The notes beneath the pieces are model-generated. The model was not told the DNA's origin and searched no databases. It was given only the letters and a program-made list of their open reading frames with translations. Shown one piece after another: positions 26,648 to 43,991 of a stretch of 55,046 bases of DNA. Numbering within the stretch: position 1 is the first letter of the stretch; each line of letters starts with the position of its first letter. Source of the DNA: Planctomycetaceae bacterium. GTDB taxonomy: Bacteria; Planctomycetota; Planctomycetia; Pirellulales; UBA1268. Location of the stretch: the NCBI GenBank assembly GCA_011523305.1, contig WTHB01000021.1, positions 67,656 to 122,701 of the forward strand. The letters are read 5' to 3'. Position numbers and translations under genes: made by a program.

Positions 26648-26659
26648 TTGCATATGCAA
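26648..26659. promoter_or_regulatory. 12-bp palindrome at the start of the DUF1559 leader
   Basis: TTGCATATGCAA is a perfect palindrome a few bases after the predicted transcription start. In this position a bound dimeric protein could block initiation; a short RNA hairpin is also possible. Purely positional inference. Confidence 0.4.
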
Positions 26660-26755
26660 TTTTGTTGCGTGACTTTCGGCCGGGAGACGGGCATACTGTC
26701 TTCGGGCAAGGATTTTTTCCATCGCTTATCTACTTTTTTTAAAGGACCACCTGCC

Positions 26756-27724
26756 ATGAAAACTTCGTCCATGAGCCGAACTCAACAGCCACGGCTCTCA
26801 CGCTATCCGGCCTTCACCCTCATCGAGTTGCTCGTAGTGATTGCCATCATTGGTGTACTTGTTGGCCTGTTGCTACCAGCCGTACAGCAGGCTCGTGAAG
26901 CAGCACGACGTTCTGCCTGTTCAAACAATATGAAGCAGATTGGGCTCGCTCTTCATAACTATGCTCATTCAAATCGCGAAAGACTTCCGACTGGATGGGT
27001 GGGTGAGCTCGATAGTGGGCATGTTCATGGTGATGAGGGGCCTGGTTGGGGCTGGGCTACCCAGATTCTTCCTTTCATGGAAGAAAATGGTGTTTACGAT
27101 AGCATTGATTTTGCTGAAGCAGTTGGGCACGCAAACAATGCAAATGCGAGAGTATCAGTACTTGCTCCATTCATCTGCCCTTCAGATGCATACGGCACGG
27201 AAAGACTTTTTTACCCGGGAGATGACGGCGTCGGTGCAAATGACGAAGAAGACAACCCTGATGCTGCACCAGGGTCGGTCCAGTATGCTCGTAGCAACTA
27301 TCCGGGCATGTTCGGATCGGAACACATAGCGCACGGTGGCCACGGTGGTGGCCTCGAGGCTGACGACGGTGACGGAACATTTTTCGCAGACGCAGCCCTT
27401 AATAACGGAGTCTACTTTCGTCACTTTACGGATGGTTTGAGCAAAACCATCGCTGTCGCTGAGCGAGACAGCCGAATGGGAGGTAGCCTTTGGATAGGAA
27501 TGCCCGAGGGTAAGTGCGCTGCAATGTCTCGTGTTGTTGGAATTGGTGAGCATATGTTCAACGAGGCTGACCCCCACTTTGAAGACTTCTATAGTTCACA
27601 CCCAAATGGAATGAATGCAGTCTTTGCAGACGGCCATGTTGCCTTTCTCTCAAGTTCCATGAATGAGACGACCTTTCAGGGATTGAGTACGCGATCAGGT
27701 GCTGAAGTAACACCTGGCTTCTGA
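26756..27724 (+). CDS. DUF1559 pseudopilin-like protein
   Basis: A 322-aa protein of the large planctomycete DUF1559 family. The N terminus is a type IV prepilin/pseudopilin cleavage-methylation segment 'AFTLIELLVVIAIIGVL' (about residues 19-35), followed by the DUF1559 hallmark 'LLPAVQQAREAARRSAC' and 'NMKQIGLALHNY'. The C-terminal 'GMNAVFADGHVAFLSS' is also family-typical. Processing by a prepilin peptidase and extracellular or envelope location are expected; the function is unknown. I chose the ATG at 26756 (AAAGGA about 11 nt upstream), which puts the Phe-Thr-Leu-Ile-Glu motif at the usual distance from the start. Its codons are clearly more AT-rich than those of ppdK or the SLC13 gene. 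Confidence 0.93.
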   Translation: MKTSSMSRTQQPRLSRYPAFTLIELLVVIAIIGVLVGLLLPAVQQAREAARRSACSNNMKQIGLALHNYAHSNRERLPTGWVGELDSGHVHGDEGPGWGWATQILPFMEENGVYDSIDFAEAVGHANNANARVSVLAPFICPSDAYGTERLFYPGDDGVGANDEEDNPDAAPGSVQYARSNYPGMFGSEHIAHGGHGGGLEADDGDGTFFADAALNNGVYFRHFTDGLSKTIAVAERDSRMGGSLWIGMPEGKCAAMSRVVGIGEHMFNEADPHFEDFYSSHPNGMNAVFADGHVAFLSSSMNETTFQGLSTRSGAEVTPGF

Positions 27725-27842: not shown

Positions 27843-29099
27843 GTGAAACTTGTGAGCATCGAACTTGACTACGCAGCTGCCAGCCCGCTGATTCTTGATC
27901 CGCGTCGTTGTCGTTTGGTGGCCAACCTGGAGGGCCCTGCAGGTCTGTCTCTCGCGGAATCTCAAAAGGCACTCACTCAAGCAATTACGACTCCGCTTAG
28001 CGGTCCACCGCTCGCAAAGCACGTTGTCCCTGGAGATCGCGTTACGGTCGCAATTCCTGGCCTACTCCTGGGTATGGTCAAGGGCCTTGATGGTCTCATT
28101 CAGCAGGTATGCGACTGCCTTCAGGCCAGTGGTGTTGATCGTGGAGATATTTCACTGCTGATTTCTCCATCGCTGAATTTGTACAACGAGCAGTTGTGCT
28201 CACAGCAGCCGTTGGGTTCAGTGAATGATGACGGCAGGCATTCAGTTCACTTTTGTGCTGCTGAGGGCGAGGAAACTGCTTATCTGCTGGCGGATGACGA
28301 TGGCGAACCACTTCATTTAGCCCGACAACTTGTTGATGCAGATGTCGTCGTTGCCGTTGAATCCTACTGTTGCGATGCGGCATTTAGCGGTCGTTCACCC
28401 GCAGGTGAACTTTGGCCTAGCTTTGGCCGGCTTGATCGTCAGCAAAGTCTCACGCGTTCGCTTCTCCGTAGCTGTCGTTCATCCCGTTATGCTTGGAGAG
28501 CACTCGCAGAGAAAGTCACTTTCCAGCTCGGTATTCTCGCCTCATTGCGATTGGTCCCAGGCCGTGACAATACACTCGCGGGCATCAGCTTCGGTTTTCC
28601 GAAAGAAGCCCTTGGTGCAGCTCGCCAAGGAGCGCATTCCTGGCGCCCTTCTTCTGCATTGAGTGGCCTTACGATCGCTGGTATATCCCGCCCCAACTGC
28701 GACTTTGCTGCAGTCACGAGTGCTGTTGCAGCAGCTGCGCGAACAACGAGTAGTGGAGGCACGATCTGTATCGCTTCAAACCTAACCAAAGGGCCGGGCC
28801 TCGTGTTTACACGCTGGCGGCAAGGTGCAAATCTCAAAATGCTACTGCGTGAAGCTGTGCATTCGGGAGATCCTGCGATCGTTCGGGAGGCACTACAGAC
28901 CAAGCTTTTTGCCCAAGCTCTCGGTGATCGCCGACTTGTGCTCCTTTCGGGACTCGATCAAGACCTTGTCGAGGATCTCGACATCGGCCACGCAAGTAGT
29001 CCAGAAGCTATTGACCGGCTGATGCACCAGGCGGGCTCCGTCACGCTCCTCCACGAGGCTGATCGTCTCTGCCCGAAGCGGGCAGATGGCGAGGCCTAA
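27843..29099 (+). CDS. LarA-like (DUF2088) protein, probably catalytically inactive
   Basis: A 418-aa protein resembling the lactate racemase LarA fold. The N-terminal domain matches in 'PLSGPPLAKHVVPGDRVTVA' (about residues 52-71), where LarA has 'PPL..LVKPGDKV', and in 'GEPLHLARQLVDADVVVAV', where LarA has its 'GTPV.....V..ADL.I' strand. The following motif, where active LarA carries a metal-binding His and the Lys bearing the nickel-pincer cofactor, reads 'ESYCCDAAFSGRSPAGELWP', with neither His nor Lys. The earlier metal-ligand His-Asp is also absent ('SVHFCAAEG'). The start is GTG at 27843 with no clear Shine-Dalgarno. It may be a degenerate racemase or a new family member with another role. 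Confidence 0.65.
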   Translation: MKLVSIELDYAAASPLILDPRRCRLVANLEGPAGLSLAESQKALTQAITTPLSGPPLAKHVVPGDRVTVAIPGLLLGMVKGLDGLIQQVCDCLQASGVDRGDISLLISPSLNLYNEQLCSQQPLGSVNDDGRHSVHFCAAEGEETAYLLADDDGEPLHLARQLVDADVVVAVESYCCDAAFSGRSPAGELWPSFGRLDRQQSLTRSLLRSCRSSRYAWRALAEKVTFQLGILASLRLVPGRDNTLAGISFGFPKEALGAARQGAHSWRPSSALSGLTIAGISRPNCDFAAVTSAVAAAARTTSSGGTICIASNLTKGPGLVFTRWRQGANLKMLLREAVHSGDPAIVREALQTKLFAQALGDRRLVLLSGLDQDLVEDLDIGHASSPEAIDRLMHQAGSVTLLHEADRLCPKRADGEA

Positions 29100-29125: not shown

Positions 29126-29148
29126 CCGAAATCAGCACCGAAATCAGC
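29126..29148. repeat. Tandem 12-nt duplication
   Basis: CCGAAATCAGCA at 29126-29137 is repeated without the last base at 29138-29148. It lies in the 44-bp gap between two convergent genes and covers the stop codon region of the signal-peptidase-like gene. Probably a simple slippage product. Confidence 0.6.
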
Positions 29149-30295
29149 GTTGGAACCCTGAGCAGTCGAGCACTTCGCCGACGATCGCTGTCAGTGGCAG
29201 CCCGCCCCAGTGTCGGCTGTCTCGGCTGGCCGCCGGGCAATCACCCAGCACAACCACCTGCCCCTGTGGCACTGACCAGCGGCGCTGGCCGGCAGGCGGC
29301 AGCCAGTGGACATCCCTCCAGACGACCAGCCTGTGGACGGTAAGGGTCGCTGCAGGGGAAGAGTTGTGGTCAGACGGAAAGTCAGCCTCTGGTAGCCCGG
29401 CAACTGCCAGCGTCAACGGAAATACCGACGGGGCGGCAGCCGCTGGGCTGAATGCCTGCCAAGCGGCCGGGGCCCCTGGCGGCAGGGCCGATCGGGCGGT
29501 CCCAGCAAGCCATGCGGCAAGCAGGTGGTCTGTTTCCATGTTCTGTGCGAGTGGCCACGCTGCGGCAACAAACTGCCCGTCGAGTCGTCCGGCGACAAGG
29601 GCGACCAGACCGCTACCTCGCACCACCATCTGAGCAGCCTGGGGACCGCAGCGGAGCGACAGCACGGCCTTGTCGTCGTCGAGCTCACTCACTGCGATCA
29701 CCGCCGCCAGCCCAACATCCCTGACCGGCTCCAGCCGACGGCGTTCGTCAGCAAGCCAGGGTGAGTCGTCGTAGATCACCGGCGTGCCGTGCGGCTGCCG
29801 GGTTACCTGCTGCGGCTCAATGGTCAACTCACCAAAGCCGGTCACTTTTGCCGCCTGCCAGTTCCAGGTGTCCCCCGCCATTCTCCAGCCGGATGGATTC
29901 TTGCACCGGAGAGCCGTTGCGTCGCCAATCACGGTTGCCAGTTCGGCAAGCACCTGCGGCGACTTCAACAGACGCGTGCCATCGGCGGTCAGGTCTCCTG
30001 CCTGGCAGGCAAGATGTTCACCGGGGAACCCGAGCACTCGCTTGACGACCTGCGGGCCCTTATCGAGTTGGCAGATCACCCGGTCATACCGGCGTGGGGG
30101 TGTTGCACACGGTCTCCACCGAACCACGTCACCATCCCGCAGTGCGGGGGCCATCGACTGGCCCACGACTCGGGCAAATCGGCAGGTGGCGTCATGCTCC
30201 AGGCAGCCTGCCAGCAACACGGCTGCAGCCAGCGAGGGGGTGATTCGCCCAGCCGCTCTCACCACACACTCCTGTTGAGCAAGACAACTGCCCAT
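29144..30295 (-). CDS. Signal-peptidase-I-like lipoprotein with a large insertion
   Basis: A 383-aa protein with the ordered motifs of S26 signal peptidases. Box B is 'VVGQSMAPALRDGDVV' with nucleophile S47, box D is 'VVKRVLGFPGE' with general-base K85, and box E is 'VVLGDCPAASRDSRHWGG' near the C terminus (about residue 350). The N-terminal hydrophobic segment ends in a canonical lipobox 'LAGC' (C31), so the protein is probably lipid-anchored rather than held by a normal membrane helix. Between boxes D and E about 230 residues of unrecognised, Ala-rich sequence are inserted, including 'GSGLVALVAGRLDGQFVAA'. Typical enzymes of the family run 180-320 aa. It ends the operon of the TolQ/ExbD-like genes (46-bp gap). 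Substrate unknown. Confidence 0.78.
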   Translation of the reverse strand: MGSCLAQQECVVRAAGRITPSLAAAVLLAGCLEHDATCRFARVVGQSMAPALRDGDVVRWRPCATPPRRYDRVICQLDKGPQVVKRVLGFPGEHLACQAGDLTADGTRLLKSPQVLAELATVIGDATALRCKNPSGWRMAGDTWNWQAAKVTGFGELTIEPQQVTRQPHGTPVIYDDSPWLADERRRLEPVRDVGLAAVIAVSELDDDKAVLSLRCGPQAAQMVVRGSGLVALVAGRLDGQFVAAAWPLAQNMETDHLLAAWLAGTARSALPPGAPAAWQAFSPAAAAPSVFPLTLAVAGLPEADFPSDHNSSPAATLTVHRLVVWRDVHWLPPAGQRRWSVPQGQVVVLGDCPAASRDSRHWGGLPLTAIVGEVLDCSGFQR

Positions 30296-30341
30296 GCAGA
30301 CGAGGCAAAGCCCCGCAGGCCATCTGCCACGTACCTTTCGA

Positions 30342-31484
30342 TCAGTCCAGCACGCCCTTGACCGGCCCTGGCTTCCGCCGTGGGGGAGGATTTTTTGGTG
30401 GCGGCGGTTTCACACCGATCTGGTAGCCACTGAATAAAACGTGATGGTAACTGCCGGGATCGCTCGGCTGCCACCCAGCGTAATAACCCGCCTTATCCGT
30501 AACCTTGCGGATCGCCATGTAGGCTTCGAATGAGTTTGGTTCAACGAGGTAGTTGAGATACCACTTGCCCTGATTGTTTCTCAGAACGGTCTGAAAAATC
30601 CCACGGACAGCTTTCTCGGGCTCCTCGCCACACTCCTCGGTGGGCTCAAGCTGCACATTGATCCGTCTACCGTCTTTTCGCAGAGTGATATCAAAATACT
30701 GATTTTTAGCCGGATCGCTATTGAAGTCGGCAATCATTTGGTCCGCTTTTTTCGCGTCAGCAATGTAGTTGCCTTCACCTACCTGGATGCCATTTTTTTC
30801 AATCAGAAACTTCAGGCGATTTTTGATGGCGGTCTCAAGACCCTTGCCAGGATCAACAAACGGAATGATCTTGCCGTCTCGTACGAGCACTTTTCGCTCT
30901 TGCAACAGTTGGTTTCCCTTGTTGTCTCGGGGAACGTCCTTGGGGGTTGGCGGACGAACTTCCTTGGGTGGCGGCGGCTTCGGGATCGGCGTGTCCTCGA
31001 GTTTCGCGATAATATCTTCCTTGGCGACGATGTATTTCTTTTCTTTTTCTTCCAGTTCCGCCAGTTGCCGCAGGAGTTGCTGCCGGAGTTCTTCAGCGGC
31101 CAGTTTCTTTTCCTCAGCCTCTTTTTCCTTGGCTGTTACGATCATCATGTCCTGCTTCGCCTTTTCCTCGGCGGCAGACAGCTCTTCTCGCAGGGACGCC
31201 AGCAATTTGTCTGGGTCAATCTTGTCGCGATCCTCTTCAACCTGAATCGCCTGCTGCAACGCTTCCAGTTCTGCCTTGGCAGCCGCAGCTTGTTGATCGA
31301 TCTTCTGCTGCTCGTTGGGGTCGATCTTCTGAATCATCTCTTCCATCCGCCTGGCCGCTTCTTGACTGGAGATCTGCACGGCAACCAGCACGATGACAAG
31401 AATGCCGACCACATTGGTCAGGGCATCGAGGAGGGAGTCCATGTTGCCGCCAGTTGCGGATGTCTTGCTTCGGCGCCGTGCCAT
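30342..31484 (-). CDS. ExbD/TolR-like protein with long coiled-coil periplasmic part (second copy)
   Basis: A 380-aa single-span protein. The membrane helix 'SLLDALTNVVGILVIVLVAV' (about residues 17-36) has an Asp (D20) where ExbD/TolR carry the proton-path Asp. After it come about 130 residues of highly charged heptad sequence rich in Glu, Lys, Gln and Ala, a Pro-rich linker ('PIPKPPPPKEVRPPTPKD'), a globular C-terminal domain of about 170 residues that I do not recognise, and a Pro-rich tail. ExbD/TolR are about 140 aa, so this is much larger. It follows the first ExbD-like gene by 47 bp. A TolR/MotB-like stator role with the TolQ-like protein is inferred from order and helix pattern. Confidence 0.75.
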   Translation of the reverse strand: MARRRSKTSATGGNMDSLLDALTNVVGILVIVLVAVQISSQEAARRMEEMIQKIDPNEQQKIDQQAAAAKAELEALQQAIQVEEDRDKIDPDKLLASLREELSAAEEKAKQDMMIVTAKEKEAEEKKLAAEELRQQLLRQLAELEEKEKKYIVAKEDIIAKLEDTPIPKPPPPKEVRPPTPKDVPRDNKGNQLLQERKVLVRDGKIIPFVDPGKGLETAIKNRLKFLIEKNGIQVGEGNYIADAKKADQMIADFNSDPAKNQYFDITLRKDGRRINVQLEPTEECGEEPEKAVRGIFQTVLRNNQGKWYLNYLVEPNSFEAYMAIRKVTDKAGYYAGWQPSDPGSYHHVLFSGYQIGVKPPPPKNPPPRRKPGPVKGVLD

Positions 31485-31531
31485 TGTTTCCTCTCCGCTC
31501 TGTTGAATCTTGTCGTGGGTCAGCCCGCTGC

Positions 31532-32428
31532 CTAATCGAGCACAATTTTTCCTTCACCGGGCAGCGGGGCCTTCCCGGTCAGCCCGTCGAGCACCGGGGC
31601 GCCGTTGGGCAGCATGCCAATGACGAGTTTCTTCTCGTTGGCTCGTTCAAACTGATTGACTGCATTTTTGACGCCACGGTAGGCGTTGATGGCATCCGGC
31701 CGAATCAGGAATGTCACAATCGTGTCCCGACGATTGCGGAGAAGCCCCGTTTGGCCAGCGTGTGTCAGCACGTAGTCCAAAAGTTTTTTGAAGTCGGCGT
31801 TGTTGCCAATGTTTGCCAGCGGAATCTGCCGGGGCTTTTCATCCCCAAATAGGTTCTTGTAATCGAGTTTGTTCGGCAATAAGACAAGGGCGGAATTAGT
31901 GACCTCTGCAAAGAACGGCCGCCGTACGCCGCTCCGGCCCTTGTTCTCGTAAAGAATCGAAATGGACTGATCTGGCTTTTCTTTTCGTTTCTCGATTTCG
32001 CCCTCGATCCGCTGGATCTCTTTAACGATCTGCTGGATCCCCATCTCGCGTTCCTTGACCTTGGCTAGGTCTTCCTTGTCCGGAGGTGGAGGCGGGGGCG
32101 GGATTTGGCGGAGCCGCTCACGGGCTTCCTGCTGCTGTTGCAGGGCCTCGGCTAGTTGCTGTTCAGCTCGCTCGATACGCTTGTCGCCGGCGATGCTCTG
32201 CCGCTTGAGCTTCTCAAGCTCCTTCTTCAGTTCCGCTACCGTCTGTAGGTCTTGCTGGGTCTGCTTCTGGACGGCCTCGCGCTTTGCCTGTTCGGCAATC
32301 GGCTTGGTGTCGACCTGCTCGAGCACCACCGCCGTAATGATCAGGATCAGATTGCCGATCACGCAGGCAAGAATGTCGAGAAAAGGGAAGAGGGAAACTT
32401 CCTGTTTCTTCTTCTCTTTACGAGCCAT
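31532..32428 (-). CDS. ExbD/TolR-like protein with coiled coil (first copy)
   Basis: A 298-aa single-span protein from the ATG at 32428. The start 'MARKEKKKQEVSLFPFLDIL' leads into a helix at about residues 13-36; D18 in 'PFLDILACVIGN' aligns with the conserved Asp of TolR/ExbD. A coiled coil rich in Lys/Glu/Gln spans about 45-115, then a run of seven prolines, a second short coil, and a C-terminal domain of about 140 residues ('RSGVRRPFFAEVTNSALVL' to the end). It sits 72 bp behind the TolQ-like gene and 47 bp before the second ExbD-like gene. Two non-identical ExbD-like partners for one channel protein is reminiscent of heteromeric stators. Confidence 0.78.
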   Translation of the reverse strand: MARKEKKKQEVSLFPFLDILACVIGNLILIITAVVLEQVDTKPIAEQAKREAVQKQTQQDLQTVAELKKELEKLKRQSIAGDKRIERAEQQLAEALQQQQEARERLRQIPPPPPPPDKEDLAKVKEREMGIQQIVKEIQRIEGEIEKRKEKPDQSISILYENKGRSGVRRPFFAEVTNSALVLLPNKLDYKNLFGDEKPRQIPLANIGNNADFKKLLDYVLTHAGQTGLLRNRRDTIVTFLIRPDAINAYRGVKNAVNQFERANEKKLVIGMLPNGAPVLDGLTGKAPLPGEGKIVLD

Positions 32429-32500
32429 GGCGTTTACTTCCAGTGTCGGGCTGGCTGCTGCCACCCCCGACGCATTTCCTGGGAAAGAGCTGCAGGGCGG

Positions 32501-34111
32501 TTACGACCGATAGCGGATGTTGGAGTTTTCCTCCGGTTTTGCCTTTTTGCTACCGCCACGGCTGAACCAGCCGCGAGACTTTGTCTCGACAGTGAGGGTC
32601 TGTCCGTTGAGACGCTCAATGGTATCGGCGAGCCCGGCTAGGCTCTGCTGCAAGGAGCCGGTGTACTCCTGCACATTGCTGGCCGCTTCGGTCATCAACT
32701 CAGCGGCCCGGCCCCGTGCTTCTTGTGCGGTTGAGGCCATGGCGACGATTTCGTCCCGCGTTGACTGCACCATCTGGCCGAGTTGCTCCACCTGGCCCGC
32801 ATTCTTTTCGTAGAGCCGATCATGGACATTGCTCCAGCCTTCTTCTACCTTGGCAGCAAGTTTTTCGCCCATGCCGTCTAGTTGGCCGACGAAATTCGAC
32901 AGTGACTGCTCGGTCTGGGCAATCCGCTCGGTCTGTTTCTCGTCGATCTTCTTCCAGGAATCATACAAATCGGCTGATACGCTTTTGCCGAGTGTCTTGA
33001 GTTGGGCGCCCCAGCCCTCAAGTTCCGCTCGATGAGCCTTCAGGGCGGCGTTGACAACCTCCTGCATGTCGACGCGGCTGGCCGTCGGCATTGGCTGGTC
33101 AGGCCCACCCCGGCCATCTTCCAGCCGTCGCAGCAGGTATTCGTTGGTGTATTCATCAACCTCGCCGATCACATCACCTTCCAGTTTCTGGAGGGCACTG
33201 ACGGGGAAGGTGAGGATCATTGCCATCGCCAGGGCGACCAGCGTCGTGTCGAACGAAGTGCCCAGACCGCCGGTGATGTTCTTGAGGCCAGACTTGAGCG
33301 ACTCCATATCGCTGGAACTGCTCAGTGTGTCGGTAAACCCGCCGACGGCGGAACTCACCCCGATCACCGTGCCGAGAAACCCAAGGATCGGAATCGCCCA
33401 GATGAAGACGTGGAACATCGTGTAACTGGAGTCGACGCTTCCGGCGTCGAGATCAGACTGGCTGGAGAGCATCGTGGCTGTGTCGGCGGCGCTCTTTCGC
33501 ACCCGAAAGTGCTCCAGGCCGCGGACACAGCGGGTGACCAAGAAACTCCCAACCGCACTCTTGGGGAGTTCGCTGATGTAGGCCAGGAACTTGTCGATGT
33601 TCCGAACCGTAATTTTCTCACCAATGTCACTAGGCAGCACATCAAACAGCATTGCCCGCTGCTGCCGCCGGATCTTGAAGAGTTTGCCGACCAGCATGCT
33701 GGCGGCCCAGCAGAACAGGAAGACCTCTGTGTACGGCACCCACATGCCGGTCGCCATCGAAGCGGTCTCACCACCAAAGAACAGCCGCCCCAGGTAGGAA
33801 CGGTCATCTTTCGGGCCAGCAAACGGAAGCAGGAGCAGGTAGAAGACAACGGTGGCTGCCAGGCCCACGAGAATATAGAGCCCGACACTGACATTTGTGT
33901 TTGCCGTGACCGAGAGCACCTTTGAGCGAGCGGCTGCCGACTCGCCCGCACCGTCTGTTCCGGCAGCCTCTCCTGCGGCAAGCGGTGGTGGGGAAGGCCG
34001 CTGCACCGTGATCGATCCGCGGCAGTGCGGACAGCGAGCGGTACTGCCGACAAGCTCATCGCGAACCTTGAGGCTCTTCTGGCAGTGTGGGCAAGGCATA
34101 TTGAAATACAT
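32501..34111 (-). CDS. MotA/TolQ/ExbB-type channel protein with zinc ribbon and long cytoplasmic tail
   Basis: A 536-aa membrane protein. Residues 7-30 form a zinc ribbon (C7-x2-C10 and C27-x2-C30, 'MPCPHCQ' and 'ARCPHCRG'). Four helices follow at about 81-101, 125-145, 228-252 and 283-303. The last two carry the family pattern 'IPILGFLGTVIGVSSAVGGF' and 'LGTSFDTTLVALAMAMILTF', as in MotA/TolQ/ExbB proton channels. The last 225 residues are cytoplasmic and largely helical with heptad character and a tail ending '..KKAKPEENSNIRYRS'. Shine-Dalgarno AGGGA about 10 nt before ATG 34111 (ATG 34099 is possible). First gene of the four-gene operon; it probably uses ion flow to drive motion or force on periplasmic partners. 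Confidence 0.85.
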   Translation of the reverse strand: MYFNMPCPHCQKSLKVRDELVGSTARCPHCRGSITVQRPSPPPLAAGEAAGTDGAGESAAARSKVLSVTANTNVSVGLYILVGLAATVVFYLLLLPFAGPKDDRSYLGRLFFGGETASMATGMWVPYTEVFLFCWAASMLVGKLFKIRRQQRAMLFDVLPSDIGEKITVRNIDKFLAYISELPKSAVGSFLVTRCVRGLEHFRVRKSAADTATMLSSQSDLDAGSVDSSYTMFHVFIWAIPILGFLGTVIGVSSAVGGFTDTLSSSSDMESLKSGLKNITGGLGTSFDTTLVALAMAMILTFPVSALQKLEGDVIGEVDEYTNEYLLRRLEDGRGGPDQPMPTASRVDMQEVVNAALKAHRAELEGWGAQLKTLGKSVSADLYDSWKKIDEKQTERIAQTEQSLSNFVGQLDGMGEKLAAKVEEGWSNVHDRLYEKNAGQVEQLGQMVQSTRDEIVAMASTAQEARGRAAELMTEAASNVQEYTGSLQQSLAGLADTIERLNGQTLTVETKSRGWFSRGGSKKAKPEENSNIRYRS

Positions 34112-34302: not shown

Positions 34303-35445
34303 TTACGATTTTCCGACGTTCACCCACTGGTGGCTCTGGGCGCTGGCCAGCACTGCATCGCAGACCTGCTGGGTTTCCAGGGCGTCGCGGAAGGTGGGCC
34401 GGCAGGGCTCGCCCTTGGCGTAGGCCGCGAGAAAATCGGCGACGTGATGAACAAATGAGTGCTCGTAGCCAATCGCGAGTCCCGGCACCCACCAGTTGGC
34501 CATGTAGGGATGGTCACCGTCGGTGATATGCACGCTCTTCCAGCCGCGTTCGGGGCCTTCGTCGCTGTAGTCAAAAATTTCGAGCCGGTGGAGATCGTGC
34601 AGATCCCACTTCAGGCTCATGTTCTCACCGTTGATCTCAAAGGTGTAGAGCGCCTTGTGGCCCCGGGCATACCGGGTGCTTTCGAAGAGGCCCAGGGAAC
34701 CATTCTGGAAATGGCAGAGGAATGAGCAGGCGTCATCAATCTCGACCTTTTCCTTTTTGCCAGTCAGTTGGTGTGTCCGCTCTTTGACAAACGTTTCTGT
34801 CATCGCCGTCACATCGCTGACCGATCCATTGAGCCAGATCGCAGTGTCGATGCAGTGGGCCAGCAGGTCACCGGTCACGCCGCTGCCCGCCGCCTTGGCG
34901 TCGAGCCGCCAGAGAGCCGCGCCGCCCTGAGGCAGGTCAGCGTTAATGGTCCAGTCTTGGAGGAAGTTCGCCCGGTAGTGAAACACCCGGCCAAGCCGGC
35001 CGGAGTCGATCAGGTGCTTGGCGAAGGTGACGGCTGGAATCCTTCGGTAGTTGTACCAGACGGTATTGGGTACGCCGGCCGCCTCGACGGCTTCGCACAT
35101 CCGTTCGCCTTCGGCCGTGTCCATCGAGAGCGGCTTCTCGCAGAGAATGGCCTTGCCATGCTTGGCGGCCTCAATGGCGATATCGGCATGCAGGTTGTTC
35201 GGGGTGCAGATATCGATCGCGTCGATGTCGTCGGCGGCCACCAGCTTTCGCCAGTCGGTTTCCACCCGCTTGTACCCCCAGCGGTCAGCAAAGGCCTGGG
35301 CTTTTTCGCTATCCCGCGCACTGACCGCCTGCAGCACCGGCAGGTATTCCAGATCAAAAAAATCCTTTACCCGGTTGTAGCCATTGGAGTGGGCCCGGCC
35401 CATGAAGCCGTAGCCGATCATGCCGATGCGGAGCGGTTTTGCCAT
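34303..35445 (-). CDS. Gfo/Idh/MocA family oxidoreductase
   Basis: A 380-aa NAD(P)-dependent sugar or inositol dehydrogenase-like protein. The Rossmann motif is '[16 protein letters not shown]' at the N terminus; '[17 protein letters not shown]' carries the conserved Glu-Lys-Pro, and '[19 protein letters not shown]' the catalytic Asp/His region. No signal peptide, so it is cytoplasmic. It lies 24 bp downstream of a sugar isomerase/epimerase-like gene on the same strand, a pairing common in planctomycetes for sugar or polyol breakdown. Substrate not predictable. Confidence 0.93.
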
Positions 35446-37586: not shown

Positions 37587-40500
37587 CTAGCGACTTGTGA
37601 CGGGAAGGCTTTGCGATCGGGCGGAAAACTCCGGTGCGTACCGGCTGCGAATCGTGGCAAAGCCGCTGGAGGCCTCGCCGCGGTGTGCGACGCGGAGGGA
37701 ATACTCAAAGACGTGGGTGCCGGGTGGCAGTCGTTCAAAGAACAGCTGCGTGCTGGCATCCCGGGTCACCTGGTACCAGCCCACACCATCGCTCCACTTC
37801 CAGCCCGAGAGCACATCGACCGGCTCCGTCAGGCTCGGGCGATGGTCGGCCAGTTCGAGGAACTCATAAGCCCGGTCGCTGGTCACCACCAGCCGCACCA
37901 CCAGTTCGTCACCCACCTCCACCGCTGTGGTGGCCGGCACCGGCTCAAGCACCGGCCCCGCCTTGGTGAAGGTCTTTTTGAACAGGGCTTTGGTGACCGC
38001 CAATTCTTTTCGGCCTGCTGCCTCAACGTTTTCGATCGCATCAAGGTACTGCCAGTGGACACCACCAAAGGCCAGCCCACCACCCGCTGGCTTGGCAAAG
38101 GTCACCTCGCCCATGGCGGGCCCGATCTCCCGCCGCACGAAGCGGGTCTCGAAAAAGCCAGTGCCCACTTCGGACTCGCTTGCCCCAGCCTCCCCTGGCT
38201 TGATCGATTCACCGCCGACGGTGACCGCCATCAGGCTTTTGTCACCGAGCAGATCACGGCCCCGACCCAGCAGGACACCGACGGCATTGGCGGTGGCCTG
38301 ATTCCCTGACCAACGGCTGGTGCGTTTCTGTTGGACGAGCCATGCCTTCATCGCCTCAACCGATGCGGCATCACCAGCCACCTCATCAAACGCCTCGATC
38401 AGGACCGACTGGGTTTCGATCGGTGCCGTCAGCCAACTCCACCAGCCGGGATGCCGCTGCCGCCACCACATACCCTGCCAGTTGTCCTCGCCTCGATCGG
38501 CGGTCTGCTCACCCCGGGGGCCACCCACCGCCCGCTGCCGCAGGCTTTCGATGATCGACAAGGCGGTCTCGCGTTCACTGTTGCGAGCGAGCGCGAGGGC
38601 CAGTTGTCCTTGGCTGCGGTTGTGCGAGAGCTCTGTCCAGCTTTTCCGGCCGACCTTAACACACCAGGCATGGGCGGCGGCGGCCGGTCCCTGAGGCGGT
38701 ACATCCTTAAGGAAGAAACTTCGGGCATAGAGGGCAAAGACCCCCAGTGAGGTGAGCACAGGCTCTTCTGCGAGGGCATTGTTGCCGGCTTTGCGGGCCC
38801 GCTCCGCTCGCCGTTCAAACAGTTCCTTCTCTTCAATCAGCCGCTGATCGATCCAGGGTATCGCGGCTAAGGCGGGGGTCACGTCAATCTTTACACCACT
38901 AGCCCGTAGCCGTCCGAAGCCAGCCGTAATCGAGAGCGTGATTGAATCGCACGATCGGCCACCGGGGAACCAGGGCCAGCCCCCGTCAGGGTTCCGCAGT
39001 CTGTTTAGGCGAGCGATCGCCGCGGCAATTTCGTTTTCCACCCGCGTCTTGTCGAAAAGCAGGGCGATGCGGGCCCGGGCTTCACGTTCGTCGGTCGCCT
39101 CACGGAACCAGGGGGTTTCCGCGAGCAGGGTTTGGACGAGGTCGCTGTTCTTCTCCAGCGGGCTTTCCAGGGCGTCGGTGCCCCGCCACTGGTCGAACAC
39201 CTGGGCAATCCGCGGGTCAGCGGCGACCAGGTGTCGGGCGTAGGCGTTGGCATAGAGCCGTTGGAACAGTGTGTCGATGCTTTCGCATCCATCTTCCATC
39301 AGGTAAGGCAGGGCCATCACCGCATACCAGGCCGGGTTGGAGACTGCCTGTACGACGAGCGACTGGTTTTCGATCGTTGCCTCTGCCTGCTGTGCCATGG
39401 CAGCGAGTTTCTCAAGACGGACGTGGCGGGTTTCGCCGCCACGAACGGTTACGGGAATCGTCTCGGTCACCAGCACCTTGCGGGGTAGGACGGGCAGCAG
39501 GGCTTCTTCGCCGTCGCTCAGCGGTCGGGCCGAGCCTGTCGTGGAGCCGGTCGCCAGATAGCGGAGCACATCGGTGCCGTCGGCAACTCGAATCGTGAAG
39601 AAGACAGCCTCGCTTGCCCCCGCCGCGAGGTCGAAGGTTCGCTCAGCCGGGCCGTCAAGGAGTGACTCACGAGAATCATTGCTGCGGGCGTCAAACAGAG
39701 CCAGCCGCACGCGGCCGGTGAGCCGGCCGGTGGAAGCGTTGCTTACTTTGACAGGGAACTGCACCACGTCGCCCTCGCGAAGGAACCGCGGTGGCTGGGG
39801 CTCAACCATCAGATCCTTGGCCGTCACACAGGTGTCAAACAGCGTGCCGCTGCGGAGCTGCTCATCATGGGCAACTGCCTTGAATTGCCAGGTGGTCAGC
39901 GTGTCGGGCAGCGTGAACTCGAGTGTCACGGCGCCGTTGGCGTCCGAGACCAGCGTCGGCAGAAAGAAGGCTGTCTCGGCGAGGTTGCGACGCGGGGGCG
40001 GGGCGGTTGCCACAGTGGGATCGGCACCGTCGGCCAGTTTGTCGGCGGCCACCTCTGGCTCACTCGTGGCTTTTGCCGACTGTTTCATCATGGCCTCAGA
40101 AGCTATCGCATCTGCTGCCATCGTGGCGTTCTCCATCGCCATTCCCTCGGCCATCGCGGGGGCCGTCATCGCGGCCATTGGCACCATGCCGCCCCGGCGC
40201 ATCCGTCCGCCCAGCATGCCACCGAAGCCGCCCTGCAGCGGGGAACCAAACGGAGCCCGGAGACGGTGGTAGGAAATCGAGACTCTCTCAAACCGCCGCC
40301 CCCATGACCCCAAGATTGGCTGCAACGGCTCCGCATCATTCGTGAACCAAAGCTGCTGCGAACTCGACTCGCCAGCGAAAAGCCCAAGAAAGCCCTGCGG
40401 CCAAGCATGCGAGGCAAGCGCATCGAGGGACTGGTCGTAGAGGGTTGCCGCCATTTCAGCGACAGTGGCTGCTGATGGTCCTGCCAACGGATCGGCGACG

Positions 40501-43500
40501 GTGCGGATGGTCGCCCGCCAGATCTCTTGTGCGGCAGGTTCCAGTTTCCGCGTGAACCGTTCCCAGGTGACGGAAAGTTGTTTGTTGGTCCACGGCACGG
40601 TGAATGTCTGCGAATCATGGTGGAGCCGACCATCCCGCACCATCCAGGCTCGTACGGTCACGCCGCCACGATGGGCGTCGGTCAGCTTCAAGCGAATGGG
40701 CGTCTGGGTTCGGTTGGGTTCGGTCCAGAACCGCTTGATCACGCGGCCCGCCTTGACCAGTTCAACCAGCATTCGCCCCTGCTCGTAGCCCGTGCCGACA
40801 AGGGCCACGAGTTCACTGTCCACGTCGACCGTTGTTTTTTCCGCCCGCAGGGCAAAAGCCCGCTTGATGCCATAGGTGCTTGCAGCCGGGTCGACGACCT
40901 CAATCAGTCGGGTGGCCTGGACCGCAGGGCGAGCCTCGTCACCTGTTACCTCAAAGATTGCCCGGTAGATGCCTGCTGACAGGTTCACTGTCGCGACCGC
41001 CTTGCCGGTGGCGGCGTCGGTCGTGTCGTCGGCCGCAAACACCTCCTCTCCCTCTGCCCAGGTCTCGGGGTTCGCGGGATCAGGTTCCCTCACCGCAGGA
41101 TCATTGACGGGGCTCCCTTTCCGGAACGCGGGGTAGGGTCCCGGACCGTTGGAGAAATCACCGCGGCTCACCTCTGGTGGCTGGACAAGCCGAACGACCC
41201 GAAGCCGCCCGGTTACTCCTCGCGGCGCTCCGTCGAGCGAGGTCGTTGTGATGGTCAGCGGCACCGCCGCCGGGTTGCCGTTGTGAGATGCCTGCCAGGC
41301 AGCCACCTCAACCGTGGCCTCAACATCGGTGTAGCCTGCCGCAACGCGGCGATTGGCCGAACGAGTCTCGCCTGCGGTGTCCGTGACATCGGCGGTCACC
41401 GCATACGTAAAAACCGGCAGCGAGGCTTGTGGCACGCTGCGGTCAGGCACCGCCGGGAATTGAATGGTGAAACTGCCGTCACCATCCGTGGTGGCCGTGC
41501 CCCGGGCAATCCGCCGGCTGCCACTGTCGAAGGGGAGCCAGGGGTAGACCCAGCGGCACCAGATCGGAAACCGCATCTGCCGTTCAACCCGCCAGACCAC
41601 CTTTGCCCCGGCGACTGCCAGCCCGGTGTAGCTGGTGGCCGTCCCTGGAAGACGGACGTCTCGGTTGAGTTGCACTGATTCGGTGGGAGCAGCCAATTCA
41701 ACCTTGAACTTCGGCCGCTTGTATTCCTCCACACGAATCGCGGTCGACCCTGATCCACCGCTGCCTCGAGCCTGAACCGACCAGCCACCGGGCAGAGCCC
41801 CTGTTGGGATCGGGAAGCTGCCTTGGAACGAGCCAAATCGATTGGTCGTGGCAGCAAGCTTTGCCACCTCACGACGATTGGCATCTCGGAGGACGACCTC
41901 GACGCGGCCTGCCTCGATCGCCCGGGCACTGCGGCCATCGGCTGCCCGCTCAAGGAGCACCCCCTTGAACTGGACGAGTTGCCCGGGCCGGTAGATGCCG
42001 CGATCACTCATCAAGACAATCGAGCGTTGGGCCCGCGATTGGTGGCGGTGATGCCAGTAGTTCTGCGGTTCACTGAGGATCGTCTGGCTGTGACCGGCGA
42101 TGCTGGCCGTGGCGACGAGGACCGCCAGACGGCCTGTGGTGGCGGCGAGTTCATAGCGGCCCTCGGCATTGGTCTGCGTGCTACCGGCCGGCTCGAACCG
42201 GGGTGGCCGATTACCGTCCGCTGGCTGCTGCCAGACGGTGACGGTTGCTCCCGCAACTGGCTCACCGCTCCCACTTTCGACCACATAGCCCGTGTGCTGG
42301 GCTTGCGGCTGCGAATGATTGGTCGTGTTAACCAGAGCCAGCCGGCTGACCCAGATGAGCGCGGTCGCAACCACGTTATCCTTGTCGCCAAAATCGTCAC
42401 GGTGGCTGGCGAGCAGCCAGTATGCTCCCGGCTCCAGTGCGGTCGCATCCAAGGCGGTGGCGACCGGAATCTGATGCATCGCTTGTCGGTAATCAGTCGT
42501 TGCCGGCAGGTCAGCGACAAAGGTTTTGACAGCCGGCAACGCCAGAAGTGCCCGGCGTTCCTCGGCATCCAGCCAGTTGCCCGCAGGTTTGCCCGCGGCC
42601 AGCCGGCCTTCCCAGTCGGCCCGTGCCAGCCGCAGATGGACCCGGGTGAGGTTGCGGTAGGTAACGGTGACAGTCGGCCAAGGCGCCGCCCAGGCCCGCT
42701 CGGTCTCGAGCGCGATTTCTTTGGATTCAATTTTTTTGATGAGGTTTCGGCACGCCTTCCCACCAACGCTATTCGGGTGGGCTTTGCTCCCTGCCAGGGC
42801 GATGGCTCTTGCCTCAGCCGGATCGTCCTCCCGCAGGCTGGATGCCAGGCGAAACCGCGCTTGAGATGACAGAGAATGATCTGCTGCCTGTTCAATGAAC
42901 CCCTTCAGTGCGGCTTGGAGGGCTTCCTTTGGCTGGGCGGTGGCATCGGCAACAGCAACGCCGCCGGCCCAGAGCAGCCGATCGAGATCAGCGGCCAGAA
43001 ATGCGGTGCGGTCGGCGTCGTCGGCATGAAAAGCCAACAGGGCTTGATAAAGACCGGCCACAGCCAGCAGGGGTGACTCGGTATCGCTGACAGTCTCACC
43101 GCCATTTGGGCCGGCCGGCTTCCATCGGCGAAAGGCCTCAACGTCCTGGAGTGCTGGGCTTGATGCCTCAAGTTCAAACGCATCCTCAGGCTCAGCAAAT
43201 CCACGTTCCCCCATCACGTAAAAAGCGATGGCATCATGAACCACCACGTCCCAGATGGTGGGGCGATAGGCGGCTCCCATGCTGCCTGGTTCAACCAGCA
43301 TCACCCAGTCATCGACAGGCAGTTTTTTCAGGCCAGCCTCATCAGCGAGCGCTACTGCAAACTGATGCTGAATTTCATCCACAATTTGTCGGAGATCCCA
43401 CGAAGCCATCTCCGTAAGGTCACGGTCGCTGTCTTCAGCAGCCTGGCTTGTCCGCTGGGAGAACCGCCAGCGGTTGGCTTGAAAAAAGCCCCATGTCCAG

Positions 43501-43892
43501 TTGGCACGAATGGCTTCGAGCACGCTGCGGGTTGGAGCGGCAGCTGCCTTCGTCGCAGCAGCAAGGTCGATCAGCCGCTGCGGGTCATCGCCGGGCCGGT
43601 CGGCATTAGTCACCAGGACCCGCGTGGCAATCGCGCGGCCCACTTCATCCCAGGCTTCTTCGGTGGCTGCCGCCTGCTCGACGCTGGTGAGGAGTTCTCC
43701 GGCTGTCTTAGGCTTTCCCTCGCGGAGCGCCTTTTCGATTCGCTTCCAAATCTCTTGACGGGGAACCTGCAACTGAGCAGCAGAGGCCTGGGCCGGCAGG
43801 CTGATAAGGCTCCATAGGCAGGCAGTGAGGCCGCACAAAAATAGGCGGTAAGCAACGGCGTTCTGCCGACAGTGAAAGGGAGTAAGTGGCAT
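37587..43892 (-). CDS. Giant alpha-2-macroglobulin-like (MG-domain) exported protein
   Basis: A 2,101-aa exported protein from the ATG at 43892 (GAGGG 10-14 nt upstream), with a signal peptide ending near 'LPAQASAAQ'. The middle shows macroglobulin MG2-type beta segments ('IVLMSDRGIYRPGQLVQFKG', 'GSFQGSFPIPTGALPGGWSV'), then a Met/Ala/Gly-rich stretch at about residues 1229-1271 in the place of the bait region. The family block 'AFFLPTLVSDANGAVTLEF' and 'LPDTLTTWQFKAVAHD' follows, and a helical thioester-type domain. The thioester motif CxEQ is missing: 'DGCESIDTLFQRLYANAYAR' has C1536 but no Gln at the required place. Bacterial relatives trap proteases in the periplasm; without the thioester it could only trap by conformational change or has another role. 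Confidence 0.87.
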   Translation of the reverse strand: MPLTPFHCRQNAVAYRLFLCGLTACLWSLISLPAQASAAQLQVPRQEIWKRIEKALREGKPKTAGELLTSVEQAAATEEAWDEVGRAIATRVLVTNADRPGDDPQRLIDLAAATKAAAAPTRSVLEAIRANWTWGFFQANRWRFSQRTSQAAEDSDRDLTEMASWDLRQIVDEIQHQFAVALADEAGLKKLPVDDWVMLVEPGSMGAAYRPTIWDVVVHDAIAFYVMGERGFAEPEDAFELEASSPALQDVEAFRRWKPAGPNGGETVSDTESPLLAVAGLYQALLAFHADDADRTAFLAADLDRLLWAGGVAVADATAQPKEALQAALKGFIEQAADHSLSSQARFRLASSLREDDPAEARAIALAGSKAHPNSVGGKACRNLIKKIESKEIALETERAWAAPWPTVTVTYRNLTRVHLRLARADWEGRLAAGKPAGNWLDAEERRALLALPAVKTFVADLPATTDYRQAMHQIPVATALDATALEPGAYWLLASHRDDFGDKDNVVATALIWVSRLALVNTTNHSQPQAQHTGYVVESGSGEPVAGATVTVWQQPADGNRPPRFEPAGSTQTNAEGRYELAATTGRLAVLVATASIAGHSQTILSEPQNYWHHRHQSRAQRSIVLMSDRGIYRPGQLVQFKGVLLERAADGRSARAIEAGRVEVVLRDANRREVAKLAATTNRFGSFQGSFPIPTGALPGGWSVQARGSGGSGSTAIRVEEYKRPKFKVELAAPTESVQLNRDVRLPGTATSYTGLAVAGAKVVWRVERQMRFPIWCRWVYPWLPFDSGSRRIARGTATTDGDGSFTIQFPAVPDRSVPQASLPVFTYAVTADVTDTAGETRSANRRVAAGYTDVEATVEVAAWQASHNGNPAAVPLTITTTSLDGAPRGVTGRLRVVRLVQPPEVSRGDFSNGPGPYPAFRKGSPVNDPAVREPDPANPETWAEGEEVFAADDTTDAATGKAVATVNLSAGIYRAIFEVTGDEARPAVQATRLIEVVDPAASTYGIKRAFALRAEKTTVDVDSELVALVGTGYEQGRMLVELVKAGRVIKRFWTEPNRTQTPIRLKLTDAHRGGVTVRAWMVRDGRLHHDSQTFTVPWTNKQLSVTWERFTRKLEPAAQEIWRATIRTVADPLAGPSAATVAEMAATLYDQSLDALASHAWPQGFLGLFAGESSSQQLWFTNDAEPLQPILGSWGRRFERVSISYHRLRAPFGSPLQGGFGGMLGGRMRRGGMVPMAAMTAPAMAEGMAMENATMAADAIASEAMMKQSAKATSEPEVAADKLADGADPTVATAPPPRRNLAETAFFLPTLVSDANGAVTLEFTLPDTLTTWQFKAVAHDEQLRSGTLFDTCVTAKDLMVEPQPPRFLREGDVVQFPVKVSNASTGRLTGRVRLALFDARSNDSRESLLDGPAERTFDLAAGASEAVFFTIRVADGTDVLRYLATGSTTGSARPLSDGEEALLPVLPRKVLVTETIPVTVRGGETRHVRLEKLAAMAQQAEATIENQSLVVQAVSNPAWYAVMALPYLMEDGCESIDTLFQRLYANAYARHLVAADPRIAQVFDQWRGTDALESPLEKNSDLVQTLLAETPWFREATDEREARARIALLFDKTRVENEIAAAIARLNRLRNPDGGWPWFPGGRSCDSITLSITAGFGRLRASGVKIDVTPALAAIPWIDQRLIEEKELFERRAERARKAGNNALAEEPVLTSLGVFALYARSFFLKDVPPQGPAAAAHAWCVKVGRKSWTELSHNRSQGQLALALARNSERETALSIIESLRQRAVGGPRGEQTADRGEDNWQGMWWRQRHPGWWSWLTAPIETQSVLIEAFDEVAGDAASVEAMKAWLVQQKRTSRWSGNQATANAVGVLLGRGRDLLGDKSLMAVTVGGESIKPGEAGASESEVGTGFFETRFVRREIGPAMGEVTFAKPAGGGLAFGGVHWQYLDAIENVEAAGRKELAVTKALFKKTFTKAGPVLEPVPATTAVEVGDELVVRLVVTSDRAYEFLELADHRPSLTEPVDVLSGWKWSDGVGWYQVTRDASTQLFFERLPPGTHVFEYSLRVAHRGEASSGFATIRSRYAPEFSARSQSLPVTSR

Positions 43893-43991
43893 CGTTGAAG
43901 GCCCTCGTTTGAGAAAACGCCGTTGGGGTGAGTGAATCCAGAAAAACAGTGTCAAAACGCCTCTATTCATCCGGATAACGCTGCCGATTGT

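What the first reader, a model, noticed from the sequence alone, without database searches (positions are those of the whole stretch)
29144..34111. Four-gene TolQ/ExbD/ExbD/signal-peptidase-like operon: a possible undescribed ion-driven envelope machine
Seen: a MotA/TolQ/ExbB-type channel with N-terminal zinc ribbon and a 225-residue helical cytoplasmic tail, two different single-span proteins keeping the channel-facing Asp (D18, D20) but with long coiled-coil and proline-rich periplasmic parts, and a lipobox-bearing S26 peptidase-like protein, all on one strand with gaps of 72, 47 and 46 bp. Known: TolQR, ExbBD, MotAB and Zorya ZorAB couple ion flow to force. Inference: the peptidase-like lipoprotein may be a substrate or effector of the stator. 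No TonB, TolA, PG-binding OmpA domain or nuclease partner is present, so it is none of the standard systems.
Basis: partly seen in the sequence, partly recalled or inferred. Interest (0 to 1): 0.65.

Follow-up and report, generated by a model that had tools for sequence, protein, structure and literature searches.

The report
Three-gene ion-driven motor, unlike-paired axle
A planctomycete carries a self-contained three-gene set that looks like an ion-powered rotary motor of the TolQR/ExbBD kind whose central axle is built from two different proteins, and in most relatives only one of the two keeps the ion-carrying residue; the neighbouring peptidase gene turns out not to be part of it.

Summary
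The four genes, their order, gaps (72, 47, 46 bp), zinc ribbon, D18/D20 and S26 motifs are all present. The unit, however, is three genes, not four. MotA-ExbDa-ExbDb occurs in this order in every complete set found (75 window-type loci in Planctomycetota and Verrucomicrobiota/Kiritimatiellae, 21 loci of a sister type). Outside the window's genus it is never beside the S26 gene. In other genera S26 sits directly between the same oxidoreductase and LarA-like genes without the trio, and three species carry the trio at a separate place. No fourth gene travels with it. The S26 protein is a signal-peptidase-I relative with its Ser/Lys dyad intact. The two axle proteins are diverged paralogues (profile E 2e-20). 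ExbDb ends in a domain whose best structural match is ExbD. ExbDb keeps D16 and D20 in every readable relative, whereas ExbDa carries Ser (61 loci) or Ala (25) at the Asp site; only the window's clade (and one distant locus) has Asp there. Best reading: a stand-alone 5:2-type ion-driven motor with a mixed, asymmetric axle and long periplasmic coiled coils; load unknown. AglRQS and a PVC tolQ/paired-tolR locus are precedents, so: new variant of a known kind. Motor function is inferred, not shown.

The parts
32501..34111 (-). MotA/TolQ/ExbB-type channel protein (536 aa): N-terminal zinc ribbon C7xxC10...C27xxC30, TM channel core about residues 76-307, helical C-terminal tail about 330-510
   Evidence: PF01618 30.5 bits, cut-off 22.9; Thr248 and Thr290 align with the same threonines of the genome's own ExbBs; Cys and pore residues invariant in 16 relatives
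31532..32428 (-). ExbDa, first axle protein (298 aa): one N-terminal TM helix with LFPFLDILAC (D18), coiled coil about 42-149, C-terminal folded domain about 170-288
   Evidence: Pfam ExbD E 0.005, sub-threshold; paralogue of ExbDb, hhalign E 2e-20
30342..31484 (-). ExbDb, second axle protein (380 aa): one N-terminal TM helix with D16-S-L-L-D20, coiled coil about 56-164, proline linker, ExbD/TolR-like domain about 193-356, proline-rich C-terminus
   Evidence: best structural match ExbD 8pek Z 7.2, TolR 5by4 third at Z 6.4; D16 and D20 invariant in 77 sequences
29144..30295 (-). Signal peptidase I-like (S26) protein with predicted lipobox; neighbour, judged NOT part of the machine
   Evidence: PF10502 E 9.5e-18; Ser47, Lys85 and the GDxPxxSRDSRxxG box conserved; gene order oxidoreductase-S26-LarA without the trio in other genera
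34303..35445 (-). Gfo/Idh/MocA oxidoreductase, upstream flank of the trio (191 bp from MotA)
   Evidence: PF01408, PF22725; directly followed by S26 in trio-less genera
27843..29099 (+). LarA-like protein, convergent, downstream flank, conserved neighbour of S26
   Evidence: PF09861 at 23.0 bits, cut-off 23.3

Best explanation
MotA-ExbDa-ExbDb is a self-contained, three-gene member of the 5:2 ion-driven motor superfamily. By analogy, five copies of the channel protein form a ring in the inner membrane around one ExbDa and one ExbDb helix (a mixed axle). Ions entering from the periplasm neutralise the carboxylates of the axle (D20, with D16 one turn away, on ExbDb; in this clade also D18 on ExbDa) opposite the pore threonines T248/T290, and drive stepwise rotation of ring against axle. 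Long periplasmic coiled coils carry the torque or tension to the end domains (ExbD/TolR-like in ExbDb), which probably engage peptidoglycan or an envelope partner. The zinc ribbon and helical tail on the cytoplasmic side are probably where the ring is anchored or regulated. Shown: gene set, order, conservation, paralogy of the axle proteins, pore residues, the Asp pattern, the end-domain resemblance of ExbDb. Inferred: stoichiometry, mixed axle, ion flow, rotation. Unknown: ion and load. The peptidase is an older, unrelated neighbour.
For: Same order MotA-ExbDa-ExbDb, same strand, in all 96 complete sets read (75 window-type, 21 sister-type). In Gimesia, where ExbDb lies alone, MotA-ExbDa are still present and adjacent elsewhere in the same genomes. 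MotA_ExbB above cut-off; T248 and T290 align with ExbB threonines and are invariant. ExbDa and ExbDb are paralogues over their whole length with the Asp columns aligned. ExbDb C-terminal domain: among 998 aligned chains ExbD ranks first (Z 7.2, 87 of 98 aa) and TolR third (Z 6.4, 95 of 105 aa). ExbDb D16/D20 invariant. No conserved fourth gene. Mechanism of the superfamily: PMC9389320.
Against: ExbD homology by sequence alone is not significant: Pfam sub-threshold, hhalign against planctomycete ExbD E 0.023 and 0.18. The structural Z scores are in a range that unrelated folds also reach, and the second-ranked hit is unrelated. No complex was modelled, so one each of ExbDa and ExbDb in one ring is a guess from co-conservation; two homodimeric motors sharing a channel are possible. 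No transducer (TonB/TolA/vWA) was found with the set. A second ExbDa-ExbDb pair without a MotA beside it exists in this genus.
Confidence: 0.62

Rival explanations
1. Two separate homodimeric motors (MotA5-ExbDa2 and MotA5-ExbDb2) share one channel protein, giving switchable tasks, as is still open for AglRQ and AglRS.
For: One channel with two D-type partners is also the AglRQS arrangement, where hetero- versus homodimers are unresolved (PMC9389320). A second ExbDa-ExbDb pair without a MotA beside it exists in the genus.
Against: In 86 of 102 non-redundant loci ExbDa has Ser or Ala at the ion site, and in 81 of these no acid within 25 residues of the motif, so an ExbDa homodimer could not work by the known mechanism. 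ExbDa and ExbDb co-occur even when the operon is split.
Confidence: 0.18
2. A Zorya-like anti-phage stator: long-tailed channel plus axle that activates a cytoplasmic effector on infection.
For: PADLOC ZorA profiles match the channel protein weakly (best E 1.4e-7, 28.6 bits), and the tail is long and helical.
Against: The match extends into coiled coil, which scores with many models; a ZorA model even matches the ExbDb coiled coil. No PADLOC hit among nine neighbouring genes. No conserved fourth gene in other genomes. ExbDa matches ZorB only at E 0.36 and ExbDb not at all.
Confidence: 0.05
3. The reader's four-gene machine, with the S26 lipoprotein as substrate or effector of the stator.
For: Adjacent, same strand, short gap in the sister genomes whose contigs reach it. 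The lipobox of S26 is seen in the same genus that has the trio beside it and not in the other genera aligned.
Against: S26 lies between the same flanking genes without the trio in other genera, and the trio lives without S26 beside it in all other genera; both are present but unlinked in G026, G082 and G090.
Confidence: 0.08
4. A gated ion channel or envelope sensor rather than a force-producing motor: the zinc ribbon or tail opens or closes ion flow, with no transmission of work.
For: No known transducer or load gene is nearby, and most relatives lack one of the two axle carboxylates.
Against: Pore threonines and ExbDb Asp are kept, and long coiled coils ending in an ExbD/TolR-like domain fit force transmission better than sensing.
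Confidence: 0.12

Closest known systems
Myxococcus AglRQS gliding motor
   Same: One MotA/TolQ-type channel with two different MotB/TolR-type partners.
   Different: AglQ and AglS are both predicted to keep the Asp (PMC9389320); here most relatives keep it only in ExbDb. Long coiled coils, zinc ribbon and long channel tail here; no Glt partners seen nearby.
PVC TPR-tolQ-paired tolR-vWA loci (PMC12204202)
   Same: TolQ-like gene plus a pair of unlike TolR-like genes in Planctomycetes and Verrucomicrobia.
   Different: The window trio has no TPR or vWA neighbour. The genome has what looks like the published kind (TPR, ExbB, two short ExbDs; no vWA seen beside it) at another place, contig C46.
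TolQR / ExbBD
   Same: Channel family, pore threonines, P-x-x-D helix motif in ExbDa (FPFLD versus TPxID), ExbD/TolR-like end domain of ExbDb.
   Different: Two unlike D-proteins 2-3 times longer, zinc ribbon, long helical tail, no TonB/TolA beside it; below the Pfam ExbD cut-off.
Zorya ZorAB
   Same: MotA-type channel with a long helical cytoplasmic tail.
   Different: No effector genes; different partner proteins; only weak, largely coiled-coil profile matches.
Broad planctomycete MotA-ExbDa-ExbDb trio (own contig C104)
   Same: Same three-gene order, same DSFLD motif in ExbDb; clear distant paralogue of the window set.
   Different: No zinc ribbon; ExbDa 600-900 aa with Ala at the Asp site; found in nearly every genome of the order examined.

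Membership tests
5:2 ion-driven motors (MotAB/TolQR/ExbBD superfamily) | MotA/TolQ/ExbB channel domain | tested here: met
   PF01618 30.5 bits against a cut-off of 22.9
5:2 ion-driven motors (MotAB/TolQR/ExbBD superfamily) | Pore-lining threonines in TM3 and TM4 of the channel | tested here: met
   T248 and T290 align with ExbB of the same genome and are invariant in relatives
5:2 ion-driven motors (MotAB/TolQR/ExbBD superfamily) | Single-span partner with a membrane carboxylate | tested here: met
   D20 of ExbDb invariant; D18 of ExbDa in the window clade and one distant locus only
5:2 ion-driven motors (MotAB/TolQR/ExbBD superfamily) | Five channel copies around two axle helices | not testable with these tools
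   No complex prediction is offered
ExbD/TolR family (PF02472) | Score above the family cut-off | tested here: not met
   ExbDa 17.3 bits against 25.4; ExbDb no hit
ExbD/TolR family (PF02472) | ExbD/TolR-type periplasmic domain fold | tested here: inconclusive
   ExbDb: ExbD Z 7.2 (rank 1) and TolR Z 6.4 (rank 3), but unrelated folds reach 6.5; ExbDa swamped by coiled coil
AglRQS | One channel plus two unlike D-type partners | tested here: met
   Gene order in all complete loci
AglRQS | Glt/AglZ partners of the gliding complex | not tested
   Not searched genome-wide; none among annotated window neighbours
Zorya | ZorC/D or ZorE effector genes beside ZorAB | tested here: not met
   No PADLOC hit among nine neighbouring genes; no conserved fourth gene
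PVC vWA force-transducer loci (PMC12204202) | TPR gene upstream and vWA transducer downstream | tested here: not met
   In the window the flanks are oxidoreductase, S26 and LarA; the flank genes examined elsewhere were neither
Signal peptidase I (S26), for gene 4 | Catalytic Ser/Lys dyad and conserved boxes | tested here: met
   S47, K85 and GDxPxxSRDSRxxG conserved

The most novel reading that the evidence does not exclude
A natural rotary-type motor with an asymmetric axle: one subunit (ExbDb) holds all the ion-carrying carboxylates (D16 and D20), the other (ExbDa) is neutral (Ser or Ala), so ions would drive only half of the usual two-stroke cycle; the window's clade has gained (or kept) an Asp on the second subunit, giving a natural comparison of one- and two-sided axles.
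Probability: 0.35. Interest if true: 0.72.

Novelty: new variant of a known kind. Interest (0 to 1): 0.5.

Why it matters
In current models of 5:2 motors two identical axle helices take turns carrying the ion. A conserved planctomycete and verrucomicrobial family in which the axle seems to be two unlike paralogues, usually only one with the carboxylate, would test whether both strokes are needed. It also adds an envelope machine of unknown load in bacteria with an unusual envelope, and shows how a neighbouring peptidase can be mistaken for a part.

Tried and rejected
Four-gene operon: rejected by gene order in other genera. Zorya: weak, largely coiled-coil matches only, no effectors. PDB sequence searches with all three alignments returned no stator proteins among the rows shown, mostly coiled coils. 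Foldseek against PDB gave no significant hit for either axle protein; the VIA second look helped only ExbDb, ExbDa being swamped by coiled coil. hhalign of either axle protein against planctomycete ExbD was weak. The promoter scan found nothing and terminator-like sites are not informative here. My first gene calls with a longest-ORF rule mis-framed several GC-rich loci; a codon-usage caller fixed most but failed on low-GC loci, so trio genes were finally taken from profile searches of stop-to-stop frames. The residue pattern first left four ExbDb sequences unread; inspection shows three have D-x-x-x-D and one is truncated.

Full report
WHAT IS THERE. The window is part of a planctomycete draft genome (3.49 Mb, 195 contigs, window = contig C83:67656-122701). 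On the minus strand lie MotA-like 34111-32501, ExbDa 32428-31532, ExbDb 31484-30342 and an S26-like gene 30295-29144, with gaps of 72, 47 and 46 bp. Upstream on the same strand are a Gfo/Idh/MocA oxidoreductase (191 bp away) and a xylose-isomerase-like TIM-barrel protein; a LarA-like gene converges from the other side.

THE UNIT IS THREE GENES. In sister species of the genus the order is isomerase - oxidoreductase - [MotA-ExbDa-ExbDb] - S26 - LarA (convergent) wherever contigs reach. In other genera (for example L102, L108, L111, L112, L117, L118, L121, L122, L123, L125) the oxidoreductase is followed directly by S26 and, where covered, LarA, with no trio in between. G082, G090 and G026 have both, at separate places. 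Thus S26 belongs to the older neighbourhood and the trio sits between two of its genes. Where the trio occurs elsewhere its flanks vary: transporters, GxGYxYP hydrolase, BNR_4, PSCyt proteins, sulfatase, histidine kinase. Clustering of flanking frames around the trio found no fourth gene shared beyond close relatives, apart from large families common in planctomycetes at varying positions, and S26 relatives only in the window's genus (plus an unlinked one at the far end of L043). The S26 protein is a plausible signal peptidase I, with Ser47, Lys85 and the C-terminal box conserved; its lipobox is seen only in the window's genus among the sequences aligned.

DISTRIBUTION. A scan of one genome per species with the ExbDb alignment found 123 relatives; the best 80 are nearly all from Planctomycetota, with a few from Verrucomicrobiota and Kiritimatiellae. 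All 75 complete window-type sets and all 21 complete sets of a broader sister type keep the order MotA-ExbDa-ExbDb on one strand (L181 is listed there as an exception only because its stop-to-stop frames overlap). In Gimesia genomes ExbDb lies alone, but MotA-ExbDa sit side by side at another place in the same genomes, which argues for a functional set of three. The window type is patchy: full-length ExbDb in about 15 of 195 phylum genomes sampled. The sister type (own contig C104; no zinc ribbon; ExbDa about 600-900 aa) is found in nearly all genomes of the order examined. The genome also holds ordinary ExbB/ExbD genes on C46 and C194.

THE CHANNEL. MotA scores above the Pfam cut-off. Its LGTV and TTLVAL segments align with those of the genome's own ExbBs, placing T248 and T290 at the pore-threonine positions. 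Four cysteines of an N-terminal ribbon are invariant in 16 close relatives; the ribbon was read in 65 window-type entries and in no sister-type entry (duplicates included).

THE AXLE PROTEINS. Both have one N-terminal membrane helix, a long coiled coil, and a folded C-terminal domain (models: mean pLDDT 81.7 and 79.3). Profile comparison shows they are paralogues nearly end to end (99.3%, E 2e-20) with the Asp columns aligned. Sequence comparison to ordinary ExbD is weak. The ExbDb end domain's best structural match is the ExbD periplasmic domain (Z 7.2, 3.9 A, 87 aligned), with TolR third (Z 6.4, 4.4 A, 95 aligned) among 998 chains; this is suggestive, not proof, since the second hit is unrelated.

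THE ASPARTATE PATTERN. ExbDb has D-x-x-x-D (D16, D20) in every sequence that reaches this region, in both types. ExbDa, at the position homologous to D20, has Ser in 61 window-type loci, Ala in all 25 sister-type loci, and Asp in 16, counted without known duplicates. Fifteen of the 16 are the window and its close kin; the other is L047, a divergent set. In 81 of the 86 Ser/Ala sequences no acidic residue was found within 25 residues of the motif start. On the channel tree the Asp-bearing clade lies inside the Ser-bearing family (12-row group 89/99, including one Ser member, L097), so Asp was most simply gained there, though several deep branches are unresolved and long-branch warnings apply.

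MECHANISM (INFERRED). The parts fit a 5:2-type motor: a pentameric ring driven past an axle by ion binding to the axle carboxylate (as proposed from structures of MotAB and kin, PMC9389320). The consistent pairing of two paralogues, one usually without carboxylate, suggests a mixed, asymmetric axle. The coiled coils (about 110 residues each) could transmit torque or tension across part of the periplasm to the end domains. What is moved is unknown.

KNOWN RELATIVES. AglRQS is the nearest functional precedent; its two partners are both described as keeping the Asp, and hetero- versus homodimers are unresolved (PMC9389320). [quoted passage not shown] the TPR-ExbB-ExbD-ExbD cluster on contig C46 resembles that, although no vWA was seen there, and the window trio does not. 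I found no description of this trio or of the Asp asymmetry in the literature held, which lacks most subscription papers and preprints.

LIMITS. Most genomes are draft MAGs; contig ends cut some sets. Functional statements rest on homology; no complex was modelled.

Noticed in passing
L090:134-2349 (own contig C40) and L091:983-3215: A second ExbDa-ExbDb pair; in sister genome G004 it follows an aspartokinase/ACT-like frame and has no MotA beside it, so this genus seems to carry an extra axle pair without its own channel.
   Followed up: partly
L035:5756-10403 (own contig C104) and L048-L073: A broader MotA-ExbDa-ExbDb trio in nearly every genome of the order examined, ExbDa 600-900 aa with Ala at the Asp site; a conserved 110-130 aa protein without Pfam match is often encoded divergently upstream.
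   Followed up: partly
L144, L156, L163, L170, L172 with L240, L236, L241: In Gimesia-like genomes the operon is split: ExbDb alone at one place; MotA-ExbDa together elsewhere (checked in the three genomes of L144, L156, L170).
   Followed up: yes
L206:6958-13094 (own contig C46): TPR-like gene, ExbB and two short ExbDs, resembling the published PVC tolQ/paired-tolR class; no vWA gene seen beside it.
   Followed up: partly
window 29144-30295 and its relatives (alignment A9): The S26 protein has a lipobox in the window's genus but none in the other genera aligned; the domain has a large insert between the Lys box and the C-terminal box.
   Followed up: partly
L175:11143-17289: In eight Mariniblastus-like loci a protein of about 2,040 aa without Pfam match (checked in L175) follows the trio by about 200 bp on the same strand.
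   Followed up: partly
window 37587-43970: Large bacterial alpha-2-macroglobulin-type protein (2127 aa; MG2, A2M, bMG10 domains).
   Followed up: no
window 26648-27724: DUF1559 protein with an N-terminal methylation motif (pseudopilin-like).
   Followed up: no
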